Shown here piece by piece: positions 3,152 through 18,312 of a stretch of DNA of 18,421 nucleotides. Origin of the DNA: an uncultured Desulfobacterales bacterium (lineage in GTDB: Bacteria; Desulfobacterota; Desulfobacteria; Desulfobacterales; G020354645); assembly GCA_947259865.1 (NCBI GenBank), contig CAMYNZ010000073.1:1-18421 (forward strand), read 5' to 3'. Within the stretch, counting starts at the first letter, position 1. Each line of letters begins with the position of its first letter. The notes below the pieces were generated by a model. It made no database searches, was not told where the DNA came from, and saw nothing but the letters and a program-made list of their open reading frames with translations. The translations under genes and the position numbers were made by a program.

Positions 3152-3279
3152 TTAGATTACTTATGTTTTTCCTCGAAACCAGTGCTAAAAAAATCGCCTT
3201 TGGGTGTCAACCAATCTGCTACTTGACCGTTATACAAAGTAGAGGCCTCAGTTATTATGGTTTAAAGGAGGTAACACCC

Positions 3280-4005
3280 ATGAAAAAATTGGCTATTACA
3301 TTGAGTTGCGCTATCGCGTTTTACGGAATGCTGTTTTTGCAACCCGGACTGGCAGACGAGAATACGCAATGGCGTGAAAATCAAAATGATCCCCGGCCCG
3401 AGCGTATCCAGGAGCGTCAGCAAATGCGACAGCGATGGCAGAATATGACCCCGGAGCAGCGCCAGCAGATGCGTCAGCGGCAGGCGCGACAGCGATGGCA
3501 GAACATGTCACCGGGGGATAGATTGGACAGAAAAGGCGATCGGATCGATAGAAGATTGGACCGACGCGGTGACCGCGCGAACGCCCGCTGGGATCGACGA
3601 GGCGACCGCGTCGATGCCCGGCTGGACCGAAAAGGGGATCGCATCGACGAGCGCCTGGACCACAAAGGTGATCGCATCGAAAACAGATACGATCGTCGGG
3701 CGGATAAGGCCCGTGAGCAAGGACGTGATGGCCTGGCCGACCGTCTTGAAAACAAAGGAGACCGGATCGATAACCGCCTCGACCGACGGGGAGATCACGT
3801 CGACCATCGGCTCGATATGCGAGGGGATCGGATTGATGGTCGCATGGATCACCGCGGTGATCGCATTGATCGCCGGCTCGACCGACGTGGCGATAACATT
3901 AACAACCGGCTGGACCGACGCGGCAATCGCCTTGACAGGAGGATGAACCATGGCGGTCAACGTAGTCAAACACGCCACCAACGCGGGCCGAGCCGCAGAC
4001 GTTAG
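3280..4005 (+). CDS. Exported basic repeat protein with 11-residue RLDRRGDRID-type repeats
   Basis: 241 aa. An N-terminal signal peptide (KK, hydrophobic residues 4-20, probable cleavage after GLADEN or nearby) indicates export. Residues 45-78 carry two RWQNM[TS]P units like those of the DUF3106-type protein at 5210-5980. From residue 81 to about 231 there are roughly twelve 11-residue units of the form R-L-D-x-R/K-G-D-R-I-D-x, with one irregular stretch at 136-154. The C-terminus is very basic. Alternating Arg and Asp suggest a charged helical array. The start is ATG 3280, with AAGGAGG at 3265-3271, 8 nt upstream; an upstream in-frame codon at 3163 lacks such a site. It ends 69 bp before the sigma-factor gene. 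Similar proteins are annotated as hypothetical; the function is unknown. Confidence 0.8.
   Translation: MKKLAITLSCAIAFYGMLFLQPGLADENTQWRENQNDPRPERIQERQQMRQRWQNMTPEQRQQMRQRQARQRWQNMSPGDRLDRKGDRIDRRLDRRGDRANARWDRRGDRVDARLDRKGDRIDERLDHKGDRIENRYDRRADKAREQGRDGLADRLENKGDRIDNRLDRRGDHVDHRLDMRGDRIDGRMDHRGDRIDRRLDRRGDNINNRLDRRGNRLDRRMNHGGQRSQTRHQRGPSRRR
3520..3972 (+). repeat. 33-bp in-frame tandem repeat array coding the 11-residue units
   Basis: The DNA follows the protein repeat at 33-bp steps, with units starting at 3520, 3553, 3586 and so on. The phase shifts by 24 bp at the irregular unit near 3685-3741. Units differ at many third positions, which points to an old, selected array rather than a recent expansion. 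The repeats keep other frames open by accident, including a 157-codon antisense frame. Confidence 0.75.
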
Positions 4006-4074: not shown

Positions 4075-4626
4075 ATGCAGGATAACAGCCGAGCAATGGA
4101 TGGTTTCTTGGCCTCTGTTGAACGACGAGCCTTCCGCATGGCGCAGATTGCAACAAAAAATTCCGAAGACGCGCTCGATATCGTCCAGGATGCCATGTTA
4201 TGTCTGGTCAGGCGTTATGGGAATAAACCGGAAGCAGAGTGGAAACCGCTGTTTTACCGTATTCTGGTAAGCCGGATCCGAGATTGGTACCGCCGCCAGA
4301 AAATACGCAGCCGCTGGCGTACCTGGCTGCATTTCACCCGCAAACAAGAAGAATCCCGGAGCGCTGATCCTATTGAATTGCTGCCGGATCCGGCGGGTCA
4401 GAATCCTTGCGAACAGATCATTATGGGACAATCGGTGGCGGCGTTGGATGCCGCCCTGCAAACTTTGCCGCAACGTCAGCTACAGGCCTTTTTATTACGA
4501 GTCTGGGAAGGGTTGAGCGTGCGCCAGGCTGCAGCGGTAATGCGGTGCTCACAAGGCAGTGTCAAGACCCACTATGCCCGAGCACTCCTGAAGCTGCGTG
4601 AATTGCTGGAGGAATATCGGCCATGA
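4075..4626 (+). CDS. ECF-type RNA polymerase sigma-70 factor
   Basis: 183 aa. Residues about 10-78 are region sigma-2 (SEDALDIVQDAMLCLVRRY for the core-binding helix, then WKPLFYRILVSRIRDWYRRQK for -10 recognition). A linker follows at 79-118, and region sigma-4 lies at about 120-178 (LQTLPQRQLQAFLLRVWEGLSVRQAAAVM, then CSQGSVKTHYARALLKL as the recognition helix). No extra domain is present, so it is an ECF-type factor. The start is ATG 4075, with AAGGA at 4065-4069, 5 nt upstream. Its stop overlaps the next start by 4 bp (ATGA, 4623-4626), indicating translational coupling to the DUF3619-like membrane protein. In sigma/DUF3619/DUF3106 clusters known from Proteobacteria the order is similar. 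The signal sensed is unknown. Confidence 0.93.
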   Translation: MQDNSRAMDGFLASVERRAFRMAQIATKNSEDALDIVQDAMLCLVRRYGNKPEAEWKPLFYRILVSRIRDWYRRQKIRSRWRTWLHFTRKQEESRSADPIELLPDPAGQNPCEQIIMGQSVAALDAALQTLPQRQLQAFLLRVWEGLSVRQAAAVMRCSQGSVKTHYARALLKLRELLEEYRP

Positions 4627-4985: not shown

Positions 4986-5220
4986 AACCATTGCTGTGGC
5001 GATTATTGTGTGTCTATTAAGTGCACCGGTATGTGCGGACGATACGGATGACCGCAGGCCGACCGACTCGCAGCACACCCGAAAAAAGGCCCAGGAACCC
5101 TCGATGCGGGAGTTGCTGGAGTTTCTGGGGCAATGGGAAACGGATGACGGTCATTGGATCGACCCAACCGATACAGACTGGCTCATCACACCGAATCAGG
5201 AATCGAACAATGAAGACTAG
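4975..5220 (+). CDS. Small exported hypothetical protein of the sigma/DUF3106 locus
   Basis: 81 aa. ATG 4975 is chosen because GAGGA at 4962-4966 lies 8 nt upstream and because it gives a clean signal peptide (RTIAVAIIVCLLSAPVCADD, cleavage after CA). An upstream in-frame ATG at 4879 would only add residues inside the preceding gene. The mature part is about 60 residues, very acidic at its end, with a conserved-looking core PSMRELLEFLGQWETDDGHW. Small proteins with a LLEFLGxWE-type core occur between DUF3619 and DUF3106 genes in other bacteria, as I recall. It overlaps the previous gene by 11 bp and the next by 11 bp. Function unknown; it may bind the strongly basic repeat protein encoded next. 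Confidence 0.75.
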   Translation: MPARTIAVAIIVCLLSAPVCADDTDDRRPTDSQHTRKKAQEPSMRELLEFLGQWETDDGHWIDPTDTDWLITPNQESNNED

Positions 5221-5980
5221 AACATACCAAATTTTCCTATTAACGCTGGTATTCATGCTCGGGCTGCTGGCAGGGCCTTTTGAATTGAATGCCGAGCAAG
5301 GCAGTATCGCCTGGGAGCAACTCGACCCCGATGAACAAAGAATTCTTCAATCTTTTTCAGAACGGTGGGATAGGTTGCCGCCCGGACAGCAGCAGCGACT
5401 CAGAAAGGGCGCCCGGCGCTGGGCAACCCTGACGCCGGAGCAACGCGATCGCGTAAAAGAAAGGTTGAAACGCTGGCAGCAAATGACACCCGATCAGCGT
5501 GAAAGAGCACGGCAACGCTTTGATCGGTTCCGCAGCCTCCCACCCCAAGAACAACAACGGTTGCGTAAAACACAGCGCTGGTTTCGAAATCTGTCGCCCG
5601 AACGGAGGCAGGAGTTGAGGAAGCGCTGGCGCAATCTGACACCGGAACAGCGGCAACAGCTGCAACGACGCTGGCAACAATCCAGGCCTCAAAACCGCCA
5701 GGACCTGTCCCCGCAGCAACGCCAACAAATGCGGGAACGTTTACAAAATATGACGCCCGAGCAAAAACGAAAACTCCGTGAACGCTGGCAAAATATGACT
5801 CCTGAACAGCGACAGCAAATTCGTCAGCGCCGGCAGAACATGTCCCCGGAACAGCGACAGCAGATGCGACAACACTGGCAGAACATGTCGCCCGAAGAAA
5901 GGTCAGCCAGGCGCGATAAAATGCGCAGTAGGTCGAGGAATAACGGCGAAACGTTTGGTGGTAAAAACCGTAAGCGCTGA
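5210..5980 (+). CDS. DUF3106-like exported repeat protein
   Basis: 256 aa. Signal peptide at residues 1-28 (TRT, then YQIFLLTLVFMLGLLAG, cleavage near ELNA-EQ). The rest is a series of about ten units containing W/F/R-x-x-[LM]-[TSP]-P-[ED]-Q/E-R, spaced at 18 residues early (near 71, 89, 107) and 15 later (from about 178: LQNMTPEQ, WQNMTPEQ, RQNMSPEQ, WQNMSPEE). It is highly Arg/Gln-rich and predicted helical, ending in a basic tail. The pattern matches DUF3106; the PEQR units resemble the LTxxQ-type motifs of Spy/CpxP periplasmic proteins, though homology is not shown. The start is ATG 5210, overlapping the previous stop by 11 bp; the upstream extension to 5021 lies inside the previous gene. 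It is the last gene of the series. Confidence 0.83.
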   Translation: MKTRTYQIFLLTLVFMLGLLAGPFELNAEQGSIAWEQLDPDEQRILQSFSERWDRLPPGQQQRLRKGARRWATLTPEQRDRVKERLKRWQQMTPDQRERARQRFDRFRSLPPQEQQRLRKTQRWFRNLSPERRQELRKRWRNLTPEQRQQLQRRWQQSRPQNRQDLSPQQRQQMRERLQNMTPEQKRKLRERWQNMTPEQRQQIRQRRQNMSPEQRQQMRQHWQNMSPEERSARRDKMRSRSRNNGETFGGKNRKR

Positions 5981-6259: not shown

Positions 6260-8380
6260 TCAGTCAACTGCAATTTCCAGGGGGTGCCGAACCACCATAC
6301 CGGTTCCTTCTTTCAAATGGATACTGCAGACACTGCTCTCTGTTACAATGGCCTCCACGCCGGACTCTTTGAAAGCCTGGAACAACGGTTCACCCACTGC
6401 CCGGGAAAGCTCGTAACCCAAAAAACCTGCCTTGAGTCCAAAAGTCCCTGCCATCCCGCAGCAGGTACCTGTTTCGATTACCGCCACTTCGGCGCCTCTC
6501 TGTTTCAGATACGCCAGCGCGTGGGTACCGGCCCCCAGTGCACGCTGGTGACAGGGAATATGGAAACCCAACCGACGCCCGCTAAGCGAAACCAATGTCT
6601 GGCGGGGTGTCTCACCCTCAAGCATTTGCAGATACTCAAAGAATTCGTACGTTCGGTTGGCCACATCATGGGCGTCCTGGCGATCGTTCAGCAACTTGGG
6701 ATATGAAAACTTGAGCGCGTAAACCGCCGTCGGCTCTGTCGCTACAATATCGTATCCCTGGCTCGCATAGACGACCAGATTGCGAACATTTTCATCTGCT
6801 GCCCGCCGCGCCCGTTTCAGATCACCATATCCGATGTAGGGATACCCACTGCCCCTCTGGGTTGGCATAACCACGTTGCAACCCCGCGCTTCCAGATGCT
6901 GGACAGCTGCCAATCCCAATTCGGGTGCGTTATAATTTGCGTACACGTCGGCAAAAAAGGCTACCCGGTGAACCGGATCGGATACCGGAGATGGGCCTCT
7001 TTTCTTAATGCGCTTGGCCAGCGTTTTGCGACTGAAGGGCGGCAGCACCCGGCGACGGTCGATGCCGACGATCTTTTCCATGCCTCCCCTGAGAATTCGG
7101 CTTTTCAGAAACCAGTTGGATATCGGTGCAAAGGCACTGCCGAATTTCGCCATGGTCTCGGCAGCCATCAGCGCCCGGTCAACTCTCAGATGCGGGTGCT
7201 GCACGCTGTGCCGGTCCTTCACAGCCGCAATCATCATGGGAATATCGATCTCTGCCGGGCAGATCTCTTTGCACAGCCCGCATGATACACACAGGGGCGC
7301 AAATTCCCCGGCTTTTTCCAGCCCGTGCACTGCAGCTGTCCAGGGGATTCCGATCGGCCCGGGGTATATATAGCCAAAGGTATGCCCCCCGACAACCCCA
7401 TACGTGGGACAGATATTCATACAGGCTGCGCAACGGATACAATTCAAAGCGTCTTGAAGCAAGGGATCCTCCCGCATCCGGGTGCGGCCGTTGTCGAGCA
7501 CGATAATGTGGGATTCCCGACGGCGATTTTCCCCGCCCTCTCCCAGCGGCGATCTCCCCGCCATCAGGGTTTCATAAGTGGTCAGATGCTGTCCCACGGC
7601 ACTGATCGGATGGGCCAGCATCATCTGCAACGCGTCCTCCACCGTCTCCACAATTTTTTCCCGGCCCATAATACAGATGTGAACATCGGGGATACTGGAT
7701 ACCAGTCGGGCATTGCCCTCATTGGTTTCAATCACGATGGCACCGATCTCTGCAATCCCTACATTGGCACCGGTCATACCGATATCGGCATTCAGAAATA
7801 TAGGGCGCATATATCGGCGAACAACCTTCATAATGGCGTCCGCATCGGCGAGGACCTCCTCACCCGTGACATCCCGGAAGATATCGGCCACTTCAGATAC
7901 CGTTTTGTGCACCGCCGGGAAGACGAGGTGAAACGGTTTCTCACCAACCAGTTGGATGATCAGTTCTCCTAAATCGGTCTCGACCACCTCCAGCCCGGCT
8001 TCTTCCAGCGGTTGGTTGATCTCAATTTCTTCGCTGGTCAGCGATTTTGACTTGGCCACAATCCTGGCCTCACGCTCACGGGCAATTTCGAGGATATAGG
8101 CGATAGCCTCGGCCCCATCTTTGGCCAGCAAAACCGAAGTGCCCCGTTCACGAACCTTCTCGGCAAAGCGATCCACCAATTCATCCTGGCGTGCCAGGCA
8201 ACGCAGCTTGGTTTCCCGCACTTTCTTTCGGAAATCCTCTCCGCCGGGCAGGAGGCCAACTGCCGCGTTTCGGCTGTCCCGCCCACGTTTCATAGACTGG
8301 TAAAGCGCGGTGCGCTTGGATTTTTCTTTAATGGCCGTTTCGATCTTTTGATAAAGGTCTAAATAGCGTTGATCTGTCAT
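6260..8380 (-). CDS. LutB-LutA-type fused iron-sulfur protein of L-lactate utilisation
   Basis: 706 aa, cytoplasmic. Residues 50-300 form a LutB-type LUD domain (AEIGAIVIETNEGNARLVSSIPDV region). Two 4Fe-4S motifs follow: C314-x2-C317-x2-C320-x3-C324-P and C364-x2-C367-x2-C370-x3-C374-P. The C-terminal third is LutA/GlpC-like with two CCG domains. The second is intact (C610-H, C640-C641-G, C685). The first (about 470-565) keeps ANYNAPELG and FSYPKLL but reads QRGSGYP where CCG is expected and EPTA where a Cys is usual. With LutC it should oxidise lactate to pyruvate and pass electrons on; a fused LutB-LutA next to LutC is known from sulfate reducers such as Desulfovibrio vulgaris. The start ATG is preceded by AAAGGAC (8388-8394). 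No lactate permease is in the window. Confidence 0.88.
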   Translation of the reverse strand: MTDQRYLDLYQKIETAIKEKSKRTALYQSMKRGRDSRNAAVGLLPGGEDFRKKVRETKLRCLARQDELVDRFAEKVRERGTSVLLAKDGAEAIAYILEIAREREARIVAKSKSLTSEEIEINQPLEEAGLEVVETDLGELIIQLVGEKPFHLVFPAVHKTVSEVADIFRDVTGEEVLADADAIMKVVRRYMRPIFLNADIGMTGANVGIAEIGAIVIETNEGNARLVSSIPDVHICIMGREKIVETVEDALQMMLAHPISAVGQHLTTYETLMAGRSPLGEGGENRRRESHIIVLDNGRTRMREDPLLQDALNCIRCAACMNICPTYGVVGGHTFGYIYPGPIGIPWTAAVHGLEKAGEFAPLCVSCGLCKEICPAEIDIPMMIAAVKDRHSVQHPHLRVDRALMAAETMAKFGSAFAPISNWFLKSRILRGGMEKIVGIDRRRVLPPFSRKTLAKRIKKRGPSPVSDPVHRVAFFADVYANYNAPELGLAAVQHLEARGCNVVMPTQRGSGYPYIGYGDLKRARRAADENVRNLVVYASQGYDIVATEPTAVYALKFSYPKLLNDRQDAHDVANRTYEFFEYLQMLEGETPRQTLVSLSGRRLGFHIPCHQRALGAGTHALAYLKQRGAEVAVIETGTCCGMAGTFGLKAGFLGYELSRAVGEPLFQAFKESGVEAIVTESSVCSIHLKEGTGMVVRHPLEIAVD

Positions 8381-8411
8381 TGATCATGTCCTTTTGTCTG
8401 AAACCGTTTCC

Positions 8412-8670
8412 AGAACCCATCTCAAAAATGCGTCTAGGGGTCCAGTGCTGCATTGCCCCGCAGACGGGACTCAGCATCTGTTAATAATAAGGTATATCGC
8501 GACACATCCTGGTTGGCGGGACCACGCTTTTCCGCCTGTCCGGCCATATATGTTTGAGCGACGACGGACTCTCCCGCGCTTTACCCGCCAAAGAACTCTG
8601 GCGGGTTAACCCGCCGTTATTGTGGCGGGCTTGCCCTGAACCACAATCCACTATTTTTGAATTAGGTTCT
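8412..8670. repeat. Intergenic palindromic element with degenerate terminal inverted repeats between lutC and lutB-lutA
   Basis: The ends 8412-8429 (AGAACCCATCTCAAAAAT) and the reverse complement of 8653-8670 (AGAACCTAATTCAAAAAT) agree at 15 of 18 positions. Inside lie a 16-bp perfect palindrome at 8600-8615 (GGCGGGTTAACCCGCC) and a TTGTGG/CCACAA pairing (8620-8625 with 8641-8646). No protein is encoded. The right end overlaps the lutC stop codon. It looks like a non-autonomous mobile repeat or a transcript-structuring element. No target-site duplication was evident. Confidence 0.5.
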
Positions 8671-9241
8671 AGTGATTGGAGGTTATAATCACCGCATGGG
8701 TTTCGGCGGGTCCGTGAACGCCGAGGGTCAACCGCATCTCGATATCACCGGTGCGGCTGGGGCCGGAAATAAAAGACACGTTCGCATTCCGGGGATTTTG
8801 GACATAAAAATTGCGAATGCGTGAGGCGGCTTGCTCAAGGGTTTCCAGCAGATCCGCTGTTCTAAATACGCCAACGTGCACCCTGGGCAGGGCCGAGACC
8901 AGGCGAACGGCATCATCTGTCGTAAACTCCACCAGGGAACCGGTCTCGGCAATAGCAAACGCCGCCCAGGTAACCCCTGCCTGGACGGAATCAAGTGCCT
9001 GGGGCAATTCGCTGCTGTCAAAGGGCCGCATCAGCACATCCAGGCCGGACTGTTCACACCGCTGTAACAGGGGATGCAGGAAATCTTGCGGCAGATCACC
9101 CAACGCCACCCGTTGGGCCGGGGCCTCCCTCAGGATGGAAAAGACCTTATCGGCAGCTTCGGTTGCGCTGGTTACCAGGTGAACATTGCCCGCAAGCGTT
9201 TCATGTTTTTGTTTAAACTCCTGCACGAGATTTTCATTCAT
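8669..9241 (-). CDS. lutC: LutC-type LUD-domain protein of lactate utilisation
   Basis: 190 aa, about the normal length for LutC. Single LUD domain: GVTWAAFAIAETGSLVEF (residues 89-106), LVSALPRVHVGVF (114-126) and the signature GPSRTGDIE (160-168) with GVHGPAE near 174, all typical of the family. It is the first gene of a two-gene minus-strand unit, 288 bp upstream of the fused lutB-lutA gene, and probably forms a complex with its product for L-lactate oxidation. The start ATG (complement of 9239-9241) has GAAGAG and AAGGGAA just upstream (within 9244-9258). A promoter candidate lies at 9296-9324. The stop TAG sits in the end of the repeat element. The symbol is by family; the biochemical role here is inferred. 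Confidence 0.85.
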   Translation of the reverse strand: MNENLVQEFKQKHETLAGNVHLVTSATEAADKVFSILREAPAQRVALGDLPQDFLHPLLQRCEQSGLDVLMRPFDSSELPQALDSVQAGVTWAAFAIAETGSLVEFTTDDAVRLVSALPRVHVGVFRTADLLETLEQAASRIRNFYVQNPRNANVSFISGPSRTGDIEMRLTLGVHGPAETHAVIITSNH

Positions 9242-12521: not shown

Positions 12522-12660
12522 TTAAGGATGTCTAGCGGGAAAAAATTGCTTCCGCATTCTGCTGCAATTCTTGAACCGGTCCTTCATCGTTATTTCCCGT
12601 TTTGTTCGTTCTAAAATTAAAGCCCCGTCAAATTTCCCACATCGAGGAGAAGGACAACCC

Positions 12661-14907
12661 ATGAAGCCCTTGGATCAGGAATTTGAAGTATCATTGGAAT
12701 GCAAGCAAAACCAGGCAGCCAATGTAGCGGGCGCCCAGGATACGCGCATGGCTAAAAAAAGTACACAAAAAACGAAATCGAAAAAATTCAATATCGATTC
12801 GCCGGATGCCCTCATCAATCGGGAGCTCAGTTGGCTCAGCTTTGCACGCCGCGTACTTGCCCTGGCACAGGACCCCACTTTGCCCTTGCTGGAGCGTGTC
12901 AAGTTTGCAGGTATCATGGGTATGCTGTATGACGAATTCGCCATGAAGCGTATCGGGGGCCTCAAGCGAAGGATAGAAAAAGGCAAAACCAAAAAGAAAG
13001 TGACCCACGGTGGACTGACCCCGGAAGAGGAATTACAGGCCTGCAGAAAGGAGTTGCACGCACAGGCCCGCCTCGTTTCACGGTTATTGAGTGATGAGCT
13101 TCGCCCCGCTTTGAAAGCGGCCGGGATTCCAATTTTGGATTACAAGGATCTGAAAAAACAACAGCGCAAATATGTGCAGCGCTATTTTCATAAATCGGTG
13201 GAACCGATTCTGACACCCCTTGCCGTTGATGCGTCGCACCCCTTTCCCTTCATCAGCAACCTCGGACTGAACCTCGCGGTACTGGTGACCGAAACCAAGA
13301 AGAAACGCAACCGTTTCGTGCGAATCAAAGTACCGGCAAATAGACCGCGTTGGGTGCCGTTACCCGACGGTACCGGTTCTGTGCCTCTGGAGCAGGTAAT
13401 CGCGTCCAACCTTAAGCGGCTTTTTCCTTCGGCGGTTGGTCTAAAGTGCTATTTCTTCCGCGTAACACGCGGTGCCAAAGATGACCCCTGGGAACGGGTC
13501 TGCCAGGAAGACGATGAACCCGAGTTTGCACCGGGTAGTATCATCGGCATGGTGACCAATGAGCTGACAGCCCGAAGGTTTGCCGGTGTGACGCGTTTCC
13601 AGGTTAACGTGGAAATGCCGAAAATACTGCGGCGCTGGATTGCCGGTCAACTCGATGCTGATCCGAAAGACATTTTAGCAAACAGGGGCCTGCTGGGTCT
13701 GGCAGACTTGATGAACTTTCAAGTCGAGGGCTATCCGGAGCTGCGCTATCCACCCCATAAGCCGGTCACACATCCACGACTGCAATTACTGGACCCGGCT
13801 GAGCCCGGAGACATATTTTCCGAGATCCGCAGGGGCGACATCCTGCTTCATCATCCTTACCACAGCTTTGACAGCTCTACTTTGCATTTTCTGCAGAGTG
13901 CAGCAATCGATCCGCGGGTGCTGGCGATCAAGCTGACCATCTACCGTACCAGCAGCCAGTCACCGATCATCCAGGCTCTGGTGGAAGCGTCACGGCAGGG
14001 CAAACAGGTGGCCGTGCTGGTGGAGATCACCGCGCGTTTTGATGAAGCTCCCAACATTGCCTGGGGCAGATTGCTGGAGCGCGAAGGGGTGCACGTCGCC
14101 TATGGTGTCGAGCGACTGAAAACCCATGTAAAATTGGCCCTGGTCGTCCGCGAGGAGGAAGACGGTATCCGCCGCTATGTCCATGTCGGAACGGGCAACT
14201 ACCATGCCGGTACTGCCAGAATTTACGAAGATCTGGGTATCCTCAGCAACGATCCGGAACTGGGTGCTAATGTTGCGGCCCTGTTCAACGAACTGACGGG
14301 CGCCATGCCTTCTCCCGGCTACGGCAAGCTGATGGTCGCCCCCCATAATCTGCGCGAGCATTTCACCGAACTGATCCAGCGTGAAGTGCAGCATCGTCAG
14401 GAGGGACGCCCTTGTGGCATACAGGCCAAAATGAATCAACTTCAGGACGCGCGCATCATTCGCGAACTCTATCTGGCCGGCCAGGCAGACGTGCCGATCA
14501 GCCTCAATGTTCGCGGGCTTTGTTGTTTGCGTGCCGGTGTCCCCGGGCTGTCCGAAAATATTCGCGTTTTCAGCACACTGGGTCGCTTCCTGGAACACGG
14601 ACGTATTTATCGCTTTGAAAATGGCGGCGACCCGGAATTCTTTCTTGGCTCAGCCGACTGGATGCGGCGCAACCTGGACCGCCGCATGGAAACCATGATG
14701 CCCGTTACCGATCCGCAACTGAAACAGGAATTGGAACAGACCCTGTACGTTTTAGAAAATGACAACTGCTCGGCCTGGGATATGCAGCCCGATGGTAGCT
14801 ACACAAAACGCCGTCCACTGGAGGGTGAAGATCGCCGCGCCGCCCAGGAAGTGTTTATCGATCTTATCGGCCGCCAGGCCAAAGGCAAGGGCCAAATCTT
14901 GAAGTGA
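12661..14907 (+). CDS. ppk1: Polyphosphate kinase 1
   Basis: 748 aa, normal PPK1 size. It makes polyphosphate from ATP reversibly. The N-terminal 40 residues are an unusual Lys-rich lead; the family signature starts at residue 53 (NRELSWLSFARRVLALA). The helical N domain follows, with YDEFAMKRIGGLKRRI near 90. The phospholipase-D-like C domains show ILLHHPYHSFDSS, AIKLTIYRTSSQSPII, RLKTHVKLALV with the catalytic His489, YVHVGTGNYHAGTARIYEDLG, and GRFLEHGRIYRF with the second active-site His646. The usual SNLDEF segment reads GMLYDEF. The start is ATG 12661, preceded by GAGGAGAAGGA (12644-12654); an in-frame TTG at 12571 is poorer, and a Met at residue 30 is an alternative. It stands 186 bp before the CHAD gene, in the same direction. 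Confidence 0.95.
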   Translation: MKPLDQEFEVSLECKQNQAANVAGAQDTRMAKKSTQKTKSKKFNIDSPDALINRELSWLSFARRVLALAQDPTLPLLERVKFAGIMGMLYDEFAMKRIGGLKRRIEKGKTKKKVTHGGLTPEEELQACRKELHAQARLVSRLLSDELRPALKAAGIPILDYKDLKKQQRKYVQRYFHKSVEPILTPLAVDASHPFPFISNLGLNLAVLVTETKKKRNRFVRIKVPANRPRWVPLPDGTGSVPLEQVIASNLKRLFPSAVGLKCYFFRVTRGAKDDPWERVCQEDDEPEFAPGSIIGMVTNELTARRFAGVTRFQVNVEMPKILRRWIAGQLDADPKDILANRGLLGLADLMNFQVEGYPELRYPPHKPVTHPRLQLLDPAEPGDIFSEIRRGDILLHHPYHSFDSSTLHFLQSAAIDPRVLAIKLTIYRTSSQSPIIQALVEASRQGKQVAVLVEITARFDEAPNIAWGRLLEREGVHVAYGVERLKTHVKLALVVREEEDGIRRYVHVGTGNYHAGTARIYEDLGILSNDPELGANVAALFNELTGAMPSPGYGKLMVAPHNLREHFTELIQREVQHRQEGRPCGIQAKMNQLQDARIIRELYLAGQADVPISLNVRGLCCLRAGVPGLSENIRVFSTLGRFLEHGRIYRFENGGDPEFFLGSADWMRRNLDRRMETMMPVTDPQLKQELEQTLYVLENDNCSAWDMQPDGSYTKRRPLEGEDRRAAQEVFIDLIGRQAKGKGQILK

Positions 14908-14923
14908 TTTCAAAACCACGCCA

Positions 14924-15011
14924 CTGAGGCGGGCAAGCCTCAGATTAGGTTCAAAAGCAAAACGCACTCCGTAATTAGTACAATCGGATGGGTAGTCCCG
15001 CGCAAGCGGGA
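14924..15011. repeat. Pair of intergenic hairpins between ppk1 and the CHAD gene
   Basis: Hairpin 1: CTGAGGC (14924-14930), loop GGGCAA, GCCTCAG (14937-14943). Hairpin 2: TCCCGC (14996-15001), loop GCAA (a GNRA tetraloop), GCGGGA (15006-15011). Neither is followed by a U-run, so they are weak terminators at best; they may stabilise or process the transcript between the two genes. Confidence 0.55.
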
Positions 15012-15093
15012 GCAACGGACTCAACGGGTTAACCTGTGTTCTTCGTGAGCATTTTTAGATCGTTCAGGTAAAAAAAATTTAGAGAATCAAATC

Positions 15094-16638
15094 ATGGGTG
15101 TTAGTTCAAAATTCAAGTTGCCGGAAGGACACAACGAAACGCAATTTATGAAAAATTTAGCGGCTCAATTTGTAATCAAAAAAGAGCCGGCGATTGTCGA
15201 AAAATTTGCACTTTACGATACGTTTGATTGGCGTTTATTTAACAAATCACTTGTTTTGTCTGTGTCCGGCAAAAAGCTATGGTTACGCAAACTGACCAAA
15301 AACGAAATTATATACAGCATCGATACCACCACATTACCCGTTTTTTTATGGGATTTTCCCGACGGTGAATTAAAAGAATATCTGGCACCGATAATAAAAA
15401 TGCGGGCACTCTTAAAGCTTGTTGACGTTCACTCGAAATCAAAACCCTATCGTGTGTTGAACCGGGATGAAAAAACAGTGGCGCGAATCGTGTACGAAGA
15501 AATTCGATCGTCACGCAATCAAAATGCCCCGGTATTGATGGCTTATTTGAGGATCAAACCCGTACGGGGATACCCCAAATATTCACAGACCCTGACAAAA
15601 AGTTTCAAAGCAGCCGAACTCACGATCGATAAAGAAGAATCGCTGTATTCAAAAGCGCTTGCAGCAGCCGGTAAAAAACCGGGAAATTATTCTGCAAAAG
15701 TGAACGTTCCGCTTGATCCGCAGATGCCATCCGGCGAAGCCACCAGAGCTATTTTGCGGTTTTTGTTACAAATAATGCAGATTAACAAACCGCACATTGA
15801 AAAAGATTTGGATACGGAATTTTTACATGATTTCCGGGTTTCCATTCGCAGGACGCGCTCGGCCTTGGGGCAGATAAAATCAATTTTTCCGGTGCAAACA
15901 ACAAACCGATTTAAGGAGGATTTTGCCTTTGTCGGTAAACTTTCCAACCAGCTGCGGGATCTCGATGTTTATCTCCTAAAAGAGGATACCTATAAGGCCA
16001 TGCTCCCCGAAGTTTTGCGTGCAGACATTGAGCCTTTGTTTGCGTATCTGAGAAAAAAAAGATCCCAGGCCTTCAGCAAAGTCGTCAGCGGTTTGAAGAC
16101 AAAAAAATGCGCCCAAATCTTAAAGGATTGGGAGACCTTTTTAAATCATCCGCTAAAAAATTCTACAACTGCAGCCAATACCGAGCTTCCCATAATAGAT
16201 TTGGCACGCACCCGAATTTTTAAAAAATATAAAAACGTCGTAAAAACCGGCAATCAAATCATCGAAAATACTGAAGACGAGATGCTGCATGCCCTCAGGA
16301 TTGAGTGTAAAAAGTTAAGGTATTTGATGGAATTTTTTACCGGTCTTTTTCCACGTAAAAAGATTAACGTGCTGATAGATCAATTAAAAAAATTACAGGA
16401 TAATCTGGGTGACTTTAATGATCTTAGTGTTCAGGAAGATTATCTTTTACAAATCAGCGAAGAATTGCCCGCAACCCGTCAGCAGGGAAACAAGACACTG
16501 GTTGCAATAGGCAGCCTGATTGGCGCATTGGACAGCAAAAGACGGACAGTTAAGGATGCATTTGCCAGTACTTTTACCGATTTTGCATCACCTGCCAATC
16601 AGGCGTTATTCCACGAACTATTTGCTTCAGAAGCGTAA
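15094..16638 (+). CDS. CHAD-domain protein with degenerate CYTH-like N-terminus
   Basis: 514 aa, no signal peptide. The C-terminal part (about 215-500) is a CHAD domain, an all-helical fold with conserved His and many Lys/Arg, known to bind polyphosphate: FLHDFRVSIRRTRSAL with His245, LRDLDVYLL, and LHALRIECKKLRYLMEFF with His399, then LQDNLGDFNDL. Residues 1-205 show strand patterns reminiscent of CYTH/triphosphate-tunnel domains (LYDTFDWRLFNKSLVLSV, LWLRKL, LMAYLRIKPVRGY), but I see no ExExK metal motif, so that part is probably non-catalytic. The gene looks more AT-rich and Lys-rich than ppk1. The ribosome site is weak (AGAGA near 15080). Its neighbours are ppk1 upstream and a ParA-type ATPase gene 11 bp downstream, consistent with a polyphosphate-related role. 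Confidence 0.87.
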   Translation: MGVSSKFKLPEGHNETQFMKNLAAQFVIKKEPAIVEKFALYDTFDWRLFNKSLVLSVSGKKLWLRKLTKNEIIYSIDTTTLPVFLWDFPDGELKEYLAPIIKMRALLKLVDVHSKSKPYRVLNRDEKTVARIVYEEIRSSRNQNAPVLMAYLRIKPVRGYPKYSQTLTKSFKAAELTIDKEESLYSKALAAAGKKPGNYSAKVNVPLDPQMPSGEATRAILRFLLQIMQINKPHIEKDLDTEFLHDFRVSIRRTRSALGQIKSIFPVQTTNRFKEDFAFVGKLSNQLRDLDVYLLKEDTYKAMLPEVLRADIEPLFAYLRKKRSQAFSKVVSGLKTKKCAQILKDWETFLNHPLKNSTTAANTELPIIDLARTRIFKKYKNVVKTGNQIIENTEDEMLHALRIECKKLRYLMEFFTGLFPRKKINVLIDQLKKLQDNLGDFNDLSVQEDYLLQISEELPATRQQGNKTLVAIGSLIGALDSKRRTVKDAFASTFTDFASPANQALFHELFASEA

Positions 16639-16649
16639 CAGAGTTTTTC

Positions 16650-17414
16650 ATGACAACCCTGGCAATTTACAGCAATAAAGGCGGGGTGGGCAAGACCGCC
16701 ACCGCAGTAAACCTGTCCTATCTGGCCGCCCGGACTGGCTCCAAAACCCTCATATGCGATCTGGATCCCCAGGGTTCTGCCACCTACTATTTTCGTGTAA
16801 AACCCAAACTCAAGTCGGGGGCCAAGGGATTCATCAAAGGCGGCAAGAGTATTTATCGAAGTGTGAAGGGCACCGATTATGAAAACCTGGATCTGCTGCC
16901 GGCAGATTTTTCACTTCGTAATCTAGATTTGTCTTTTGACAAGTTAAAACGTTCAAAAAAGCGGCTGAGCCGGATAATAAATCCGTTTAAAGACCAATAT
17001 GATTTAATTATTCTCGACTGTCCGGTCACCATCAGTATCCTGGCTGAAAATATATTCAACGCTGTTGACTTTACCCTTGTCCCGGTTATACCAACAACGC
17101 TGTCGGTGCGAACCTACGGACAATTGCTGTCTTTTTGCAAAAAGCACAAATATGAGGTCGCTAAGATATACCCTTTTTTTTCAATGGTTGACCGGCATAA
17201 AAAAATGCACCGGGAACTCATGGCCACTGTGTCGAGAAAGTTTAACGGCGTCTTACAAAGTCCTATTCCCTTTTTATCCGAGATCGAAAAAATGGGAATT
17301 TATCGGGAGCCGGTCGTGGCCTTCTCGCCCGGTTCAACGGCTTCACAATCGTATCAAAACCTGTGGCATGACATCCGGGAAACTATTCTGAATTCAGATA
17401 ATCGGAAAAAGTGA
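16650..17414 (+). CDS. ParA/MinD-type P-loop ATPase
   Basis: 254 aa. Deviant Walker A KGGVGKT (residues 10-16, with signature Lys10 and Lys15), Walker A' CDLDPQG (36-42) and Walker B-like DLIILDCP (118-125) identify the ParA family. Between 49 and 75 there is a basic insertion (KPKLKSGAKGFIKGGKS). The C-terminal half has the usual VPVIPTTLSVRT motif and a basic, helical end that could bind DNA non-specifically. No ParB, parS, MinE or plasmid genes are near, so chromosome or plasmid partitioning is unlikely to be its job here. It starts 11 bp after the CHAD gene, without a strong ribosome site, suggesting coupling to it. It may position a cellular cargo, as orphan ParA proteins do for carboxysomes (McdA) and chemosensory arrays (ParC); the cargo is inferred, not shown. 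Confidence 0.9.
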   Translation: MTTLAIYSNKGGVGKTATAVNLSYLAARTGSKTLICDLDPQGSATYYFRVKPKLKSGAKGFIKGGKSIYRSVKGTDYENLDLLPADFSLRNLDLSFDKLKRSKKRLSRIINPFKDQYDLIILDCPVTISILAENIFNAVDFTLVPVIPTTLSVRTYGQLLSFCKKHKYEVAKIYPFFSMVDRHKKMHRELMATVSRKFNGVLQSPIPFLSEIEKMGIYREPVVAFSPGSTASQSYQNLWHDIRETILNSDNRKK

Positions 17415-17470
17415 GCCGCGGTGAACTCAGCCCGCCAAAAATCTCTGGCGCATAAATCTGCCAAAGTATC

Positions 17471-17537
17471 GATCGCGGCTGGAAGCCGCTCCCACAGATC
17501 GATGGTGAATATGGGGGAGCGGCTTCCAGCCGCGATC
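17471..17537. repeat. REP-like element with perfect 23-bp arms
   Basis: Arms 17471-17493 and 17515-17537 are perfect reverse complements, with a 21-nt loop. The arms contain GCGGCTGGAAGCCGC, itself nearly palindromic and a common core of dispersed REP-type repeats in bacteria. It lies in the 154-bp gap between the ParA-type and guanylate-kinase-like genes. A smaller CCGCCA/TGGCG pairing lies just upstream, near 17433-17451. Confidence 0.75.
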
Positions 17538-17568
17538 AAAACGAAAGAAATTCGCAAAGGAGTTACAA

Positions 17569-18312
17569 GTGAACAGATTTGTTATGTTATCGGGGCCATC
17601 GTGCGTTGGAAAGGGTCCCTTGTACAGCGCCCTGTGCAAATTTTATCCTGATCTGGCCGGCAGATTAGACAAGATCGTCTTATATAACAGCCGTGATCCG
17701 CGGCCCGGAGAACAGGAAGGGATAGATTACTATTTCCGGTCTAAATCTGAGATCGAGGAACTGGCTCAAAAGCCCGGATTTACATCTGCTAATGTTCGAG
17801 GAGATTTACAGGCTATCGCGTTCGCAGGTATTAAAACGATTTTGGATCGTGATAAGGACCCATTTTTTGAGGGCAATCCTTTCATTCCAGCCAATCTGAG
17901 CGAATTGACGGAATTGCGGGAGATCCCAACCCTAAAAATTTTTCTCTCTCCCCTTTCACAGGAGGAAATTCTGTTTCTCAAAGACCCGCGGCAGCGAACC
18001 AGTCTTGAAAAATTACTGCCGGATATCATGCGCCGGAAACTGTTGCGGCGCACCAAACGACAGAAAAATATTCTTTCTTTGAAGGATCTGGAAAACATCG
18101 AAATGCGCGTCGCCAGCGCCATTGTGGAGCTGCGGGAGGCCTGGAAATTCGACTATGTCATTCCCAACCACGATGGTGAAGACAGCGAGCACTGGGATGC
18201 TTTTTATTACCCAATCGGCGAGGCCCGCAAGGCTCTTATATCTTTTGCGGCACTTCTGCAGGGGGAGACACCGCCGGGTTTGGAACAGTGGGAAAAAGAA
18301 CTGGTGCCATGA
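17569..18312 (+). CDS. Guanylate-kinase-like P-loop protein with altered P-loop
   Basis: 247 aa from GTG 17569, with AAAGGAG at 17556-17562, 6 nt upstream. The N-terminus has MLSGPSCVGKGPLYSAL (P-loop at 9-16) and then LYNSRDPRPGEQEGIDYYF, matching the GMP-binding region of guanylate kinases (usual form TTRxPRPGExxGxDYxF). Later, DLENIEMRVASAIVELREAW and FDYVIPNHD match the family's C-terminal part. It is about 40 residues longer than a typical Gmk, the extra lying around 90-140 and at the C-terminus. The usual GKGT or GKST is GKGP, so the hydroxyl residue that helps bind Mg-ATP is replaced by Pro17, and the second P-loop Gly by Cys12. It may be a specialised or weak kinase rather than the housekeeping Gmk. 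It closes the ppk1/CHAD/ParA series. Confidence 0.78.
   Translation: MNRFVMLSGPSCVGKGPLYSALCKFYPDLAGRLDKIVLYNSRDPRPGEQEGIDYYFRSKSEIEELAQKPGFTSANVRGDLQAIAFAGIKTILDRDKDPFFEGNPFIPANLSELTELREIPTLKIFLSPLSQEEILFLKDPRQRTSLEKLLPDIMRRKLLRRTKRQKNILSLKDLENIEMRVASAIVELREAWKFDYVIPNHDGEDSEHWDAFYYPIGEARKALISFAALLQGETPPGLEQWEKELVP

What the first reader, a model, noticed from the sequence alone, without database searches (positions are those of the whole stretch)
12661..18312. ppk1 / CHAD / ParA / guanylate-kinase-like series: candidate polyphosphate-granule positioning and use system
Seen: four same-direction genes coding PPK1 with both active-site His, a CYTH-like/CHAD protein, a ParA-type ATPase only 11 bp behind the CHAD gene, and a guanylate-kinase-like protein. 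Known: PPK1 makes polyphosphate, CHAD domains bind it and locate to granules, and orphan ParA ATPases position cargo over the nucleoid. Inference: the CHAD protein could be the cargo adaptor linking polyphosphate granules to the ParA-type ATPase, and the kinase-like protein could connect the polymer to guanine nucleotides. I know of no described system with this set.
Basis: partly seen in the sequence, partly recalled or inferred. Interest (0 to 1): 0.75.

Follow-up and report, generated by a model that had tools for sequence, protein, structure and literature searches.

The report
Polyphosphate-binding protein paired with ParA ATPase
Next to a polyphosphate-making enzyme, this bacterial DNA carries a polyphosphate-binding protein and a ParA-type ATPase that stay together in many distant microbes, and the likeliest role of the pair is to position stored polyphosphate inside the cell.

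Summary
The four genes are real. The core is a CHAD gene and, 11 bp behind it, a ParA-type ATPase gene. CHAD lies next to this ParA in 80 of 80 nearest species-genome loci and near 0 of 23 ordinary ParA genes. By record titles the pair spans about ten bacterial phyla and Methanophagales archaea; the two gene trees share 24 of 43 splits. In 14 genomes PPK1, PPK2 or Ppx lie near this ParA in 7 of 14 loci, near ordinary ParA in 0 of 16; Chloroflexota pairs stand alone (0 of 17). The six residues tested for polyphosphate binding in the crystallised CtCHAD are invariant in 82 of 82 aligned proteins, 73 of them ParA-linked; a near-identical CtCHAD gene sits directly before this ParA. In one draw of 296 genomes the ParA goes with long CHAD proteins (62 of 64), not short ones (1 of 64).

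Best reading: a polyphosphate-granule positioning module. Not shown: ParA-CHAD contact, DNA binding, granule movement. Fourteen genomes lack the neighbourhood. The guanylate-kinase-like gene is a local extra. Acidithiobacillus papers noted ppk-parA-CHAD without this idea.

The parts
12661..14907 (+). ppk1, polyphosphate kinase 1 (in-frame TTG start also at 12571)
   Evidence: TIGR03705 and NF003921 above cut-off; aligns with E. coli PPK1 1xdo, histidines at residues 489 and 646
15094..16638 (+). CHAD protein, 514 aa, long class
   Evidence: Pfam CHAD; AlphaFold2 model pLDDT 91.1, pTM 0.85
15094..15687 (+). N-terminal domain (residues 1-198) with the fold of triphosphate tunnel enzymes, catalytic ExExK motif absent
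15694..16632 (+). CHAD domain (residues 201-513); H245, R248, R252, R288, R409, Y410 match the tested polyphosphate-binding residues of CtCHAD
16650..17414 (+). ParA-type ATPase of a distinct, CHAD-linked family (deviant Walker A KGGVGKT; D39; D123)
   Evidence: Pfam AAA_31; signature residues; tree
17466..17542 (.). 34-nt inverted repeat (88% complementary, 9 nt apart) between ParA and the guanylate-kinase-like gene; role unknown, might thin out transcription
   Evidence: the repeat finder
17569..18312 (+). guanylate-kinase-like protein (GTG start), lineage-specific extra
   Evidence: PF00625 above, TIGR03263 below cut-off; in L002, L004, L005, L007 and the window only, of 81 loci

Best explanation
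CHAD and ParA form a dedicated positioning or partition module for polyphosphate. PPK1 makes the polymer. The CHAD domain grips it (shown by others for the close relative CtCHAD). The N-terminal tunnel-fold domain, which has lost its catalytic motif, docks onto the ParA and triggers its ATPase (inferred). The ParA dimer, held on a large polyanionic matrix, most likely the nucleoid, turns over ATP and so spreads or moves the granule before division (inferred from the ParA family). In many lineages genes for PPK2, Ppx, SixA and CYTH enzymes nearby use or turn over the polymer. The guanylate-kinase-like protein is an accessory of one Desulfobacterales lineage.
For: Pairing: 80 of 80 nearest loci, chosen by ParA similarity alone; CHAD-to-ParA gap 30 bp or less in 63 of 79 same-strand pairs, 32 with a 4-bp overlap. 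Negative controls: 0 of 23 ordinary ParA loci with CHAD, 0 of 20 and 0 of 16 in wider stretches. Co-inheritance: 24 of 43 tree splits shared, shuffled mean 0.2, maximum 3 of 500 shuffles. Six genomes keep both genes on different contigs (15 kb read around ParA in two of them). Class match in one draw of 296 genomes: 62 of 64 long-CHAD genomes have the ParA, 1 of 64 short-only, 4 of 168 without CHAD. PolyP setting: in 14 genomes PPK1, PPK2 or Ppx near this ParA in 7 of 14 loci, near ordinary ParA in 0 of 16; outside Chloroflexota 39 of 61 loci of 9 kb or more. Binding: the six CtCHAD residues shown by mutation to bind polyP are invariant in 82 of 82 aligned proteins, 73 of them from loci with the ParA (PMC6537752, Results parts 1 and 2 of 3 read). 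A CHAD gene 99.7% identical to the crystallised chain lies directly before this ParA, with PPK1 near. Orphan state: ParB beside another ParA in 14 of 18 genomes, within 10 kb of this ParA in 0 of 18. ATPase motifs intact: K10, K15, D39 and D123 in 46 of 46.
Against: No contact, ATPase stimulation or granule movement was tested. In Chloroflexota 0 of 17 wide loci of the pair hold PPK1, PPK2, Ppx, SixA or CYTH genes by the single-sequence searches used, so the polyP setting is not general. Of the two arginines that other ParA proteins use for DNA, one is mostly kept as a basic residue (R 36, K 4, H 3 of 46; the window has H183) and the other is mostly lost (D 20, Q 11, A 5; the window has E211). 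The family is strongly basic (median pI 9.5 against 5.6), which fits DNA but fits polyphosphate as well. Fourteen genomes in the draws have a ParA of this family without CHAD next door; six of them have no CHAD at all. G032, G633 and G701 have long CHAD without this ParA at the cut-offs used.
Confidence: 0.55

Rival explanations
1. The ParA-fold ATPase controls polyphosphate metabolism rather than position: with CHAD it switches or paces PPK1, PPK2 or granule growth, as a polymer-sensing ATPase.
For: PPK1, PPK2, Ppx, SixA and CYTH genes cluster around the pair in many lineages. In E. coli YgiF the CHAD domain stimulates the tripolyphosphatase activity (PMC6537752), so CHAD can act as a regulator.
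Against: The pair persists where no PPK or Ppx gene is near (39 of 78 loci of 9 kb or more, among them 17 of 17 in Chloroflexota). The deviant Walker A family is best known for positioning (family knowledge).
Confidence: 0.2
2. The ParA binds polyphosphate itself, so that the granule and not the nucleoid is its matrix. CHAD and ParA would then form a granule coat or a size and fusion control system.
For: Family median pI 9.5 against 5.6 for 23 ordinary ParA proteins; one canonical DNA-contact arginine mostly lost, new basic positions R49 (46 of 46) and R219 (44 of 46).
Against: The other DNA-contact position is mostly kept basic. DNA-contact residues vary much among proven DNA-binding ParA proteins (PMC7229837, passages read).
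Confidence: 0.15
3. The pair acts on chromosome or nucleoid behaviour, with polyP as a signal: CHAD works as a ParB-like partner that reports polymer state to chromosome segregation or compaction.
For: In Caulobacter granule position depends on chromosome segregation (review PMC13052382, passages read). ParA is a segregation fold.
Against: An ordinary ParA-ParB pair is present elsewhere in 14 of 18 genomes, and no ParB lies within 10 kb of this ParA in those 18.
Confidence: 0.06

Closest known systems
McdA-McdB carboxysome positioning (PpfA, PomZ and other orphan ParA cargo systems recalled)
   Same: An orphan ParA next to a gene for a non-ParB partner that binds the cargo; a separate ParA-ParB pair serves the chromosome.
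   Different: The partner is a folded polyP-binding CHAD protein with a tunnel-fold domain; the cargo would be a mineral polymer granule. No functional proof yet.
CtCHAD (PDB 6qv7, 6qva; Q8KE09) of Chlorobaculum tepidum
   Different: The solved structure covers residues 207-522 only, without the N-terminal domain. A text search of the paper for words beginning 'para' gave only 'parameters'; its gene-cluster figure is not held.
Acidithiobacillus folD-ppk-parA-CHAD cluster (PMC10892726, PMC6416229)
   Same: The same set of ppk, parA and a CYTH/CHAD protein gene.
   Different: There ParA is called a plasmid or chromosome partitioning protein and the CYTH part an adenylyl cyclase; no positioning role in the passages read.
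E. coli YgiF (PDB 5a60)
   Same: Tunnel-fold domain followed by CHAD (Foldseek rank 5).
   Different: YgiF is an active tripolyphosphatase (PMC6537752); the window protein lacks the ExExK motif.
AlgP of Pseudomonas aeruginosa
   Same: A protein that affects number and spacing of polyP granules (review passages).
   Different: AlgP is a histone-like DNA-binding protein, not an ATPase of the ParA kind.

Membership tests
CHAD polyphosphate-binding domain | Pfam CHAD above cut-off | tested here: met
   181.6 bits against 25.6
CHAD polyphosphate-binding domain | Basic residues that bind polyP in CtCHAD | tested here: met
   H245, R248, R252, R288, R409, Y410 present; invariant in 82 of 82
CYTH / triphosphate tunnel enzyme | Tunnel fold | tested here: met
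CYTH / triphosphate tunnel enzyme | Catalytic ExExK motif near the N-terminus | tested here: not met
   Absent in the window; an E.E.[KR] match in the first 45 residues in 4 of 82 (starting at 17-33), against 23 of 23 stand-alone CYTH neighbours in their first 40
ParA/MinD deviant Walker A ATPase | KGGVGKT with signature lysine, catalytic aspartates | tested here: met
   K10, K15, D39, D123 in 46 of 46
ParABS partition system | ParB gene beside parA | tested here: not met
   No ParB_N match within 10 kb of this ParA in 18 of 18 genomes; parS not searched; window's own genome not held
Orphan ParA cargo-positioning system (McdAB-like) | Orphan ParA with a conserved cargo-adaptor gene next to it | tested here: met
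   CHAD next door in 80 of 80 nearest loci
Orphan ParA cargo-positioning system (McdAB-like) | ATP-dependent nonspecific DNA binding | tested here: inconclusive
   One of two known arginines mostly kept as basic, one mostly lost; protein strongly basic
Orphan ParA cargo-positioning system (McdAB-like) | Adaptor stimulates ATPase; cargo position depends on ParA | not testable with these tools
   Needs bench work
Cellulose-synthesis BcsQ (name given by a source to many relatives) | TIGR03371 cut-off | tested here: not met
   61.8 bits against 157.85
Guanylate kinase | TIGR03263 cut-off | tested here: not met
   61 bits against 160.45
Guanylate kinase | P-loop Ser/Thr and guanine contacts (roles recalled) | tested here: not met
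   Ser/Thr position is Gly in 16 of 17; the position aligned with the Glu of E. coli 'FLEHAEV' is Thr in 14 of 17; the one aligned with the Asp of 'VFLD' is Glu in 17 of 17
Polyphosphate kinase 1 | TIGR03705 cut-off and both active-site histidines | tested here: met
   715.4 against 465.85; histidines 489 and 646 (active-site role recalled)

The most novel reading that the evidence does not exclude
A separate ParA family, spread as one unit with its partner across some ten bacterial phyla and into archaea, exists to position polyphosphate. Its adaptor is a former triphosphate-processing enzyme whose dead catalytic domain became the ParA docking part while its CHAD domain holds the polymer.
Probability: 0.45. 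Interest if true: 0.85.

Novelty: new variant of a known kind. Interest (0 to 1): 0.76.

Why it matters
A 2025 review lists only the DNA-binding AlgP for polyP granule placement and says it remains to be seen whether energy is spent on it (PMC13052382, passages read). This pair gives a concrete ATPase and adaptor to test, in an organism whose CHAD structure with polyP is already solved. It would add a mineral polymer to the cargoes of ParA-type ATPases, and would explain why these CHAD proteins carry a tunnel domain without its catalytic motif.

Tried and rejected
The first structure run, on 21 close CHAD sequences, failed in the N-terminal half (mean pLDDT 62.5); an alignment of 82 gave 91.1. 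A natural CHAD-ParA fusion was looked for among long open frames (L233, L234); these are overlapping frames, not fusions. Phage origin: the best 80 of 157 viral relatives hold only distant ParA proteins (32% identity or less, save 37% over 79 and 45% over 47 residues) and no CHAD. Rfam: no match in the window. Promoter and terminator scans gave no more than shuffles. BcsQ and ParABS readings were rejected on cut-off and on absence of ParB. My first control for the polyP setting, 0 of 19 ordinary-ParA loci, was all Chloroflexota, where the family loci score 0 of 17 too; it says nothing, and I replaced it by ordinary ParA loci of the same 14 genomes. The Fisher value (3.5e-55) is not used, because one class probably dominates. 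Print: seven searches, with capped listings in 18 and 97, showed no title or opened passage that proposes this pair as a positioning system; I opened passages or sections of seven papers. Subscription papers and preprints are mostly not held.
Full report
WHAT IS THERE. The window is a single 18,421-base contig; no whole genome is held for it, and its close kin are Desulfobacterales. At its right end lie four genes in one direction: ppk1 (12661-14907), a CHAD protein (15094-16638), a ParA-type ATPase (16650-17414) and a guanylate-kinase-like gene (17569-18312). Gaps are 186, 11 and 154 bp. A 34-nt inverted repeat lies between ParA and the last gene. In the relatives L002 and L004, which have the same order, the row goes on with a 200-aa protein (no Pfam match for L002's), a CYTH enzyme and a SixA-type phosphatase, and two PPK2 genes and a phosphoesterase lie on the other strand.

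THE CORE IS CHAD PLUS PARA. One scan of species genomes with the ParA alignment gave 531 relatives, of which the best 80 were kept. CHAD is present next to ParA in 80 of 80. With the window this makes 81 loci: in 79 CHAD comes first on the same strand; in L066 it follows, and in L077 it lies behind on the other strand. The gap is 30 bp or less in 63 of the 79, and in 32 the genes overlap by 4 bp. Wider draws: Desulfobacterota, 6 of 148 genomes have the ParA (above 200 bits) and 12 have CHAD; 5 have both, adjacent. Chloroflexota, 7 of 201 have the ParA (above 200 bits), 6 of 7 with CHAD adjacent, while 0 of 23 weaker, ordinary ParA loci have one (30 of 64 matches were fetched). Order of L002's genome, 11 of 96 have the ParA (E up to 1e-45), 9 with CHAD adjacent. 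Bacteroidota/Chlorobiota, 67 of 296 genomes, 68 loci (E up to 1e-45): 57 adjacent, 6 with a long CHAD on another contig, 1 with a short CHAD elsewhere, 4 without any CHAD.

CLASS SPECIFICITY. In that last set 64 genomes have a long CHAD (open frame of 500 aa or more; two were classed by hand because the gene runs off a contig end) and 62 of them have the ParA. Of 64 with only short CHAD, 1 has it; of 168 without CHAD, 4 have it. Among Desulfobacterota the five paired CHAD frames are 515-553 aa; the seven unpaired ones are 299-425 aa save G032 with 535. So the ParA goes with the extra N-terminal domain, not with CHAD as such. This is why I propose that domain as the ParA contact (inference).

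THE PARA. It has all ATPase motifs and forms a group apart from 11 ordinary ParA proteins with full support. Y7, R49, H187, E213, M215 and W239 are the same in 46 of 46 family members (R219 in 44) and absent at those places in 23 of 23 ordinary ones. A ParB gene lies beside another ParA in 14 of 18 genomes examined (three have no ParB match), and none lies within 10 kb of this ParA (the list was cut, that not). Median pI is 9.5 against 5.6. One arginine known for DNA contact in other ParA proteins is mostly kept as a basic residue, the other mostly lost (PMC7229837 passages), so DNA binding stays open.

CO-INHERITANCE AND SETTING. Trees of 46 CHAD and 46 ParA proteins share 24 of 43 splits against a shuffled mean of 0.2 and maximum of 3; distances correlate at r = 0.85 over 78 CHAD/ParA pairs. 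Phyla are mixed in the same way: a split that puts the two Methanophagales archaea among bacterial lineages is shared by both trees. Of 78 CHAD-linked loci of 9 kb or more, 39 hold PPK1, PPK2 or Ppx: 39 of 61 outside Chloroflexota and 0 of 17 within. In 14 genomes read at both places, 7 of 14 loci of this ParA hold one, against 0 of 16 loci of ordinary ParA. Loci without CHAD next door were left out of these family counts; 0 of 9 of those hold PPK1, PPK2 or Ppx. The searches were with one sequence per enzyme, so distant enzymes may be missed. Cable bacteria, two of whose Electrothrix genomes carry the pair (L063, L076), show two polyP granules at the cell poles in thin filaments (PMC9159916, passages read); the strains are not the same.

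AGAINST. Fourteen genomes of the draws have this ParA without CHAD next door. Ten were fetched: L163, L191, L236-L240, L242, L251 and L252; four (G548, G611, G627, G671) are known only by coordinates on different contigs. For L251 and L252 a long CHAD lies on another contig; for L163 and L237 a short one elsewhere; the other six fetched genomes have none. L191's ParA is beside a PAS protein, and L237, L238 and L240 have an esterase near. Apart from L251 and L252, which sit among Chlorobia, these branch near the base or in side groups of the family, so some members may have other cargo.

THE GUANYLATE-KINASE-LIKE GENE. It is found in 5 of 81 loci and in 2 of 96 genomes, each time directly behind the ParA; the context of its many further relatives in the protein collection was not seen. 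It is well kept (75-87% identity) yet far from real guanylate kinases: below the curated cut-off, P-loop Ser/Thr changed to Gly in 16 of 17, guanine contacts changed (roles recalled). It may bind another nucleotide or be inactive.

MECHANISM, SHOWN AND INFERRED. Shown here: genes, pairing, class specificity, invariant binding residues, intact ATPase motifs, orphan state, polyP setting in part of the lineages. Shown by others: CHAD binds polyP; CHAD proteins sit on granules (passages of PMC6537752 and PMC9239181). Inferred: the N-terminal domain docks ParA; ParA uses the nucleoid; ATP turnover spreads granules.

KNOWN OR NEW. The gene set was reported in Acidithiobacillus (PMC10892726, PMC6416229; passages) with ParA taken for plasmid or chromosome partition. 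A 2025 review names no ATPase for polyP granules (PMC13052382, passages). My searches showed no proposal of this pair as a positioning system; the library lacks most subscription papers and all preprints. I file it as a new variant of the ParA cargo-positioning kind, unproven.

Noticed in passing
window 17466-17542; L051 9625-9642; L052 4638-4655: A palindromic arm GCGGCTGGAAGCCGCTCC lies just behind ParA in the window and again just behind the paired ParA in two Dadabacteria loci, and in none of the other 270 loci held at that time. It may be a REP-like repeat.
   Followed up: partly
L237 6894-7619, L238 6625-7374, L240 9205-9996: Three of the loci of this ParA family without CHAD next door have a putative esterase nearby; perhaps another cargo.
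   Followed up: partly
L191 5576-7008: A ParA-family gene follows a coiled-coil PAS protein in a genome without any CHAD match.
   Followed up: partly
Chloroflexota loci, e.g. L040, L044, L195: In 17 of 17 wide Chloroflexota loci the CHAD-ParA pair has no PPK1, PPK2, Ppx, SixA or CYTH gene near, unlike other phyla.
   Followed up: partly
L005 9324-10004 (same gene L250 7139-7816): The CHAD reading frame is short here, so the N-terminal domain seems out of frame in this assembly; error or decay not settled.
   Followed up: no
window 3163-4005 and 5021-5980: Two repetitive, charged proteins, one with DUF3106 repeats, flank a sigma-factor gene (4075-4626).
   Followed up: no
window 6260-9241, minus strand: A lactate-utilisation LutB/LdhH-like iron-sulfur protein and a smaller related protein, both below the curated cut-offs.
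   Followed up: no
L067, L071: Methanophagales archaea carry ppk1-CHAD-ParA in the bacterial order, a likely transfer between domains.
   Followed up: partly
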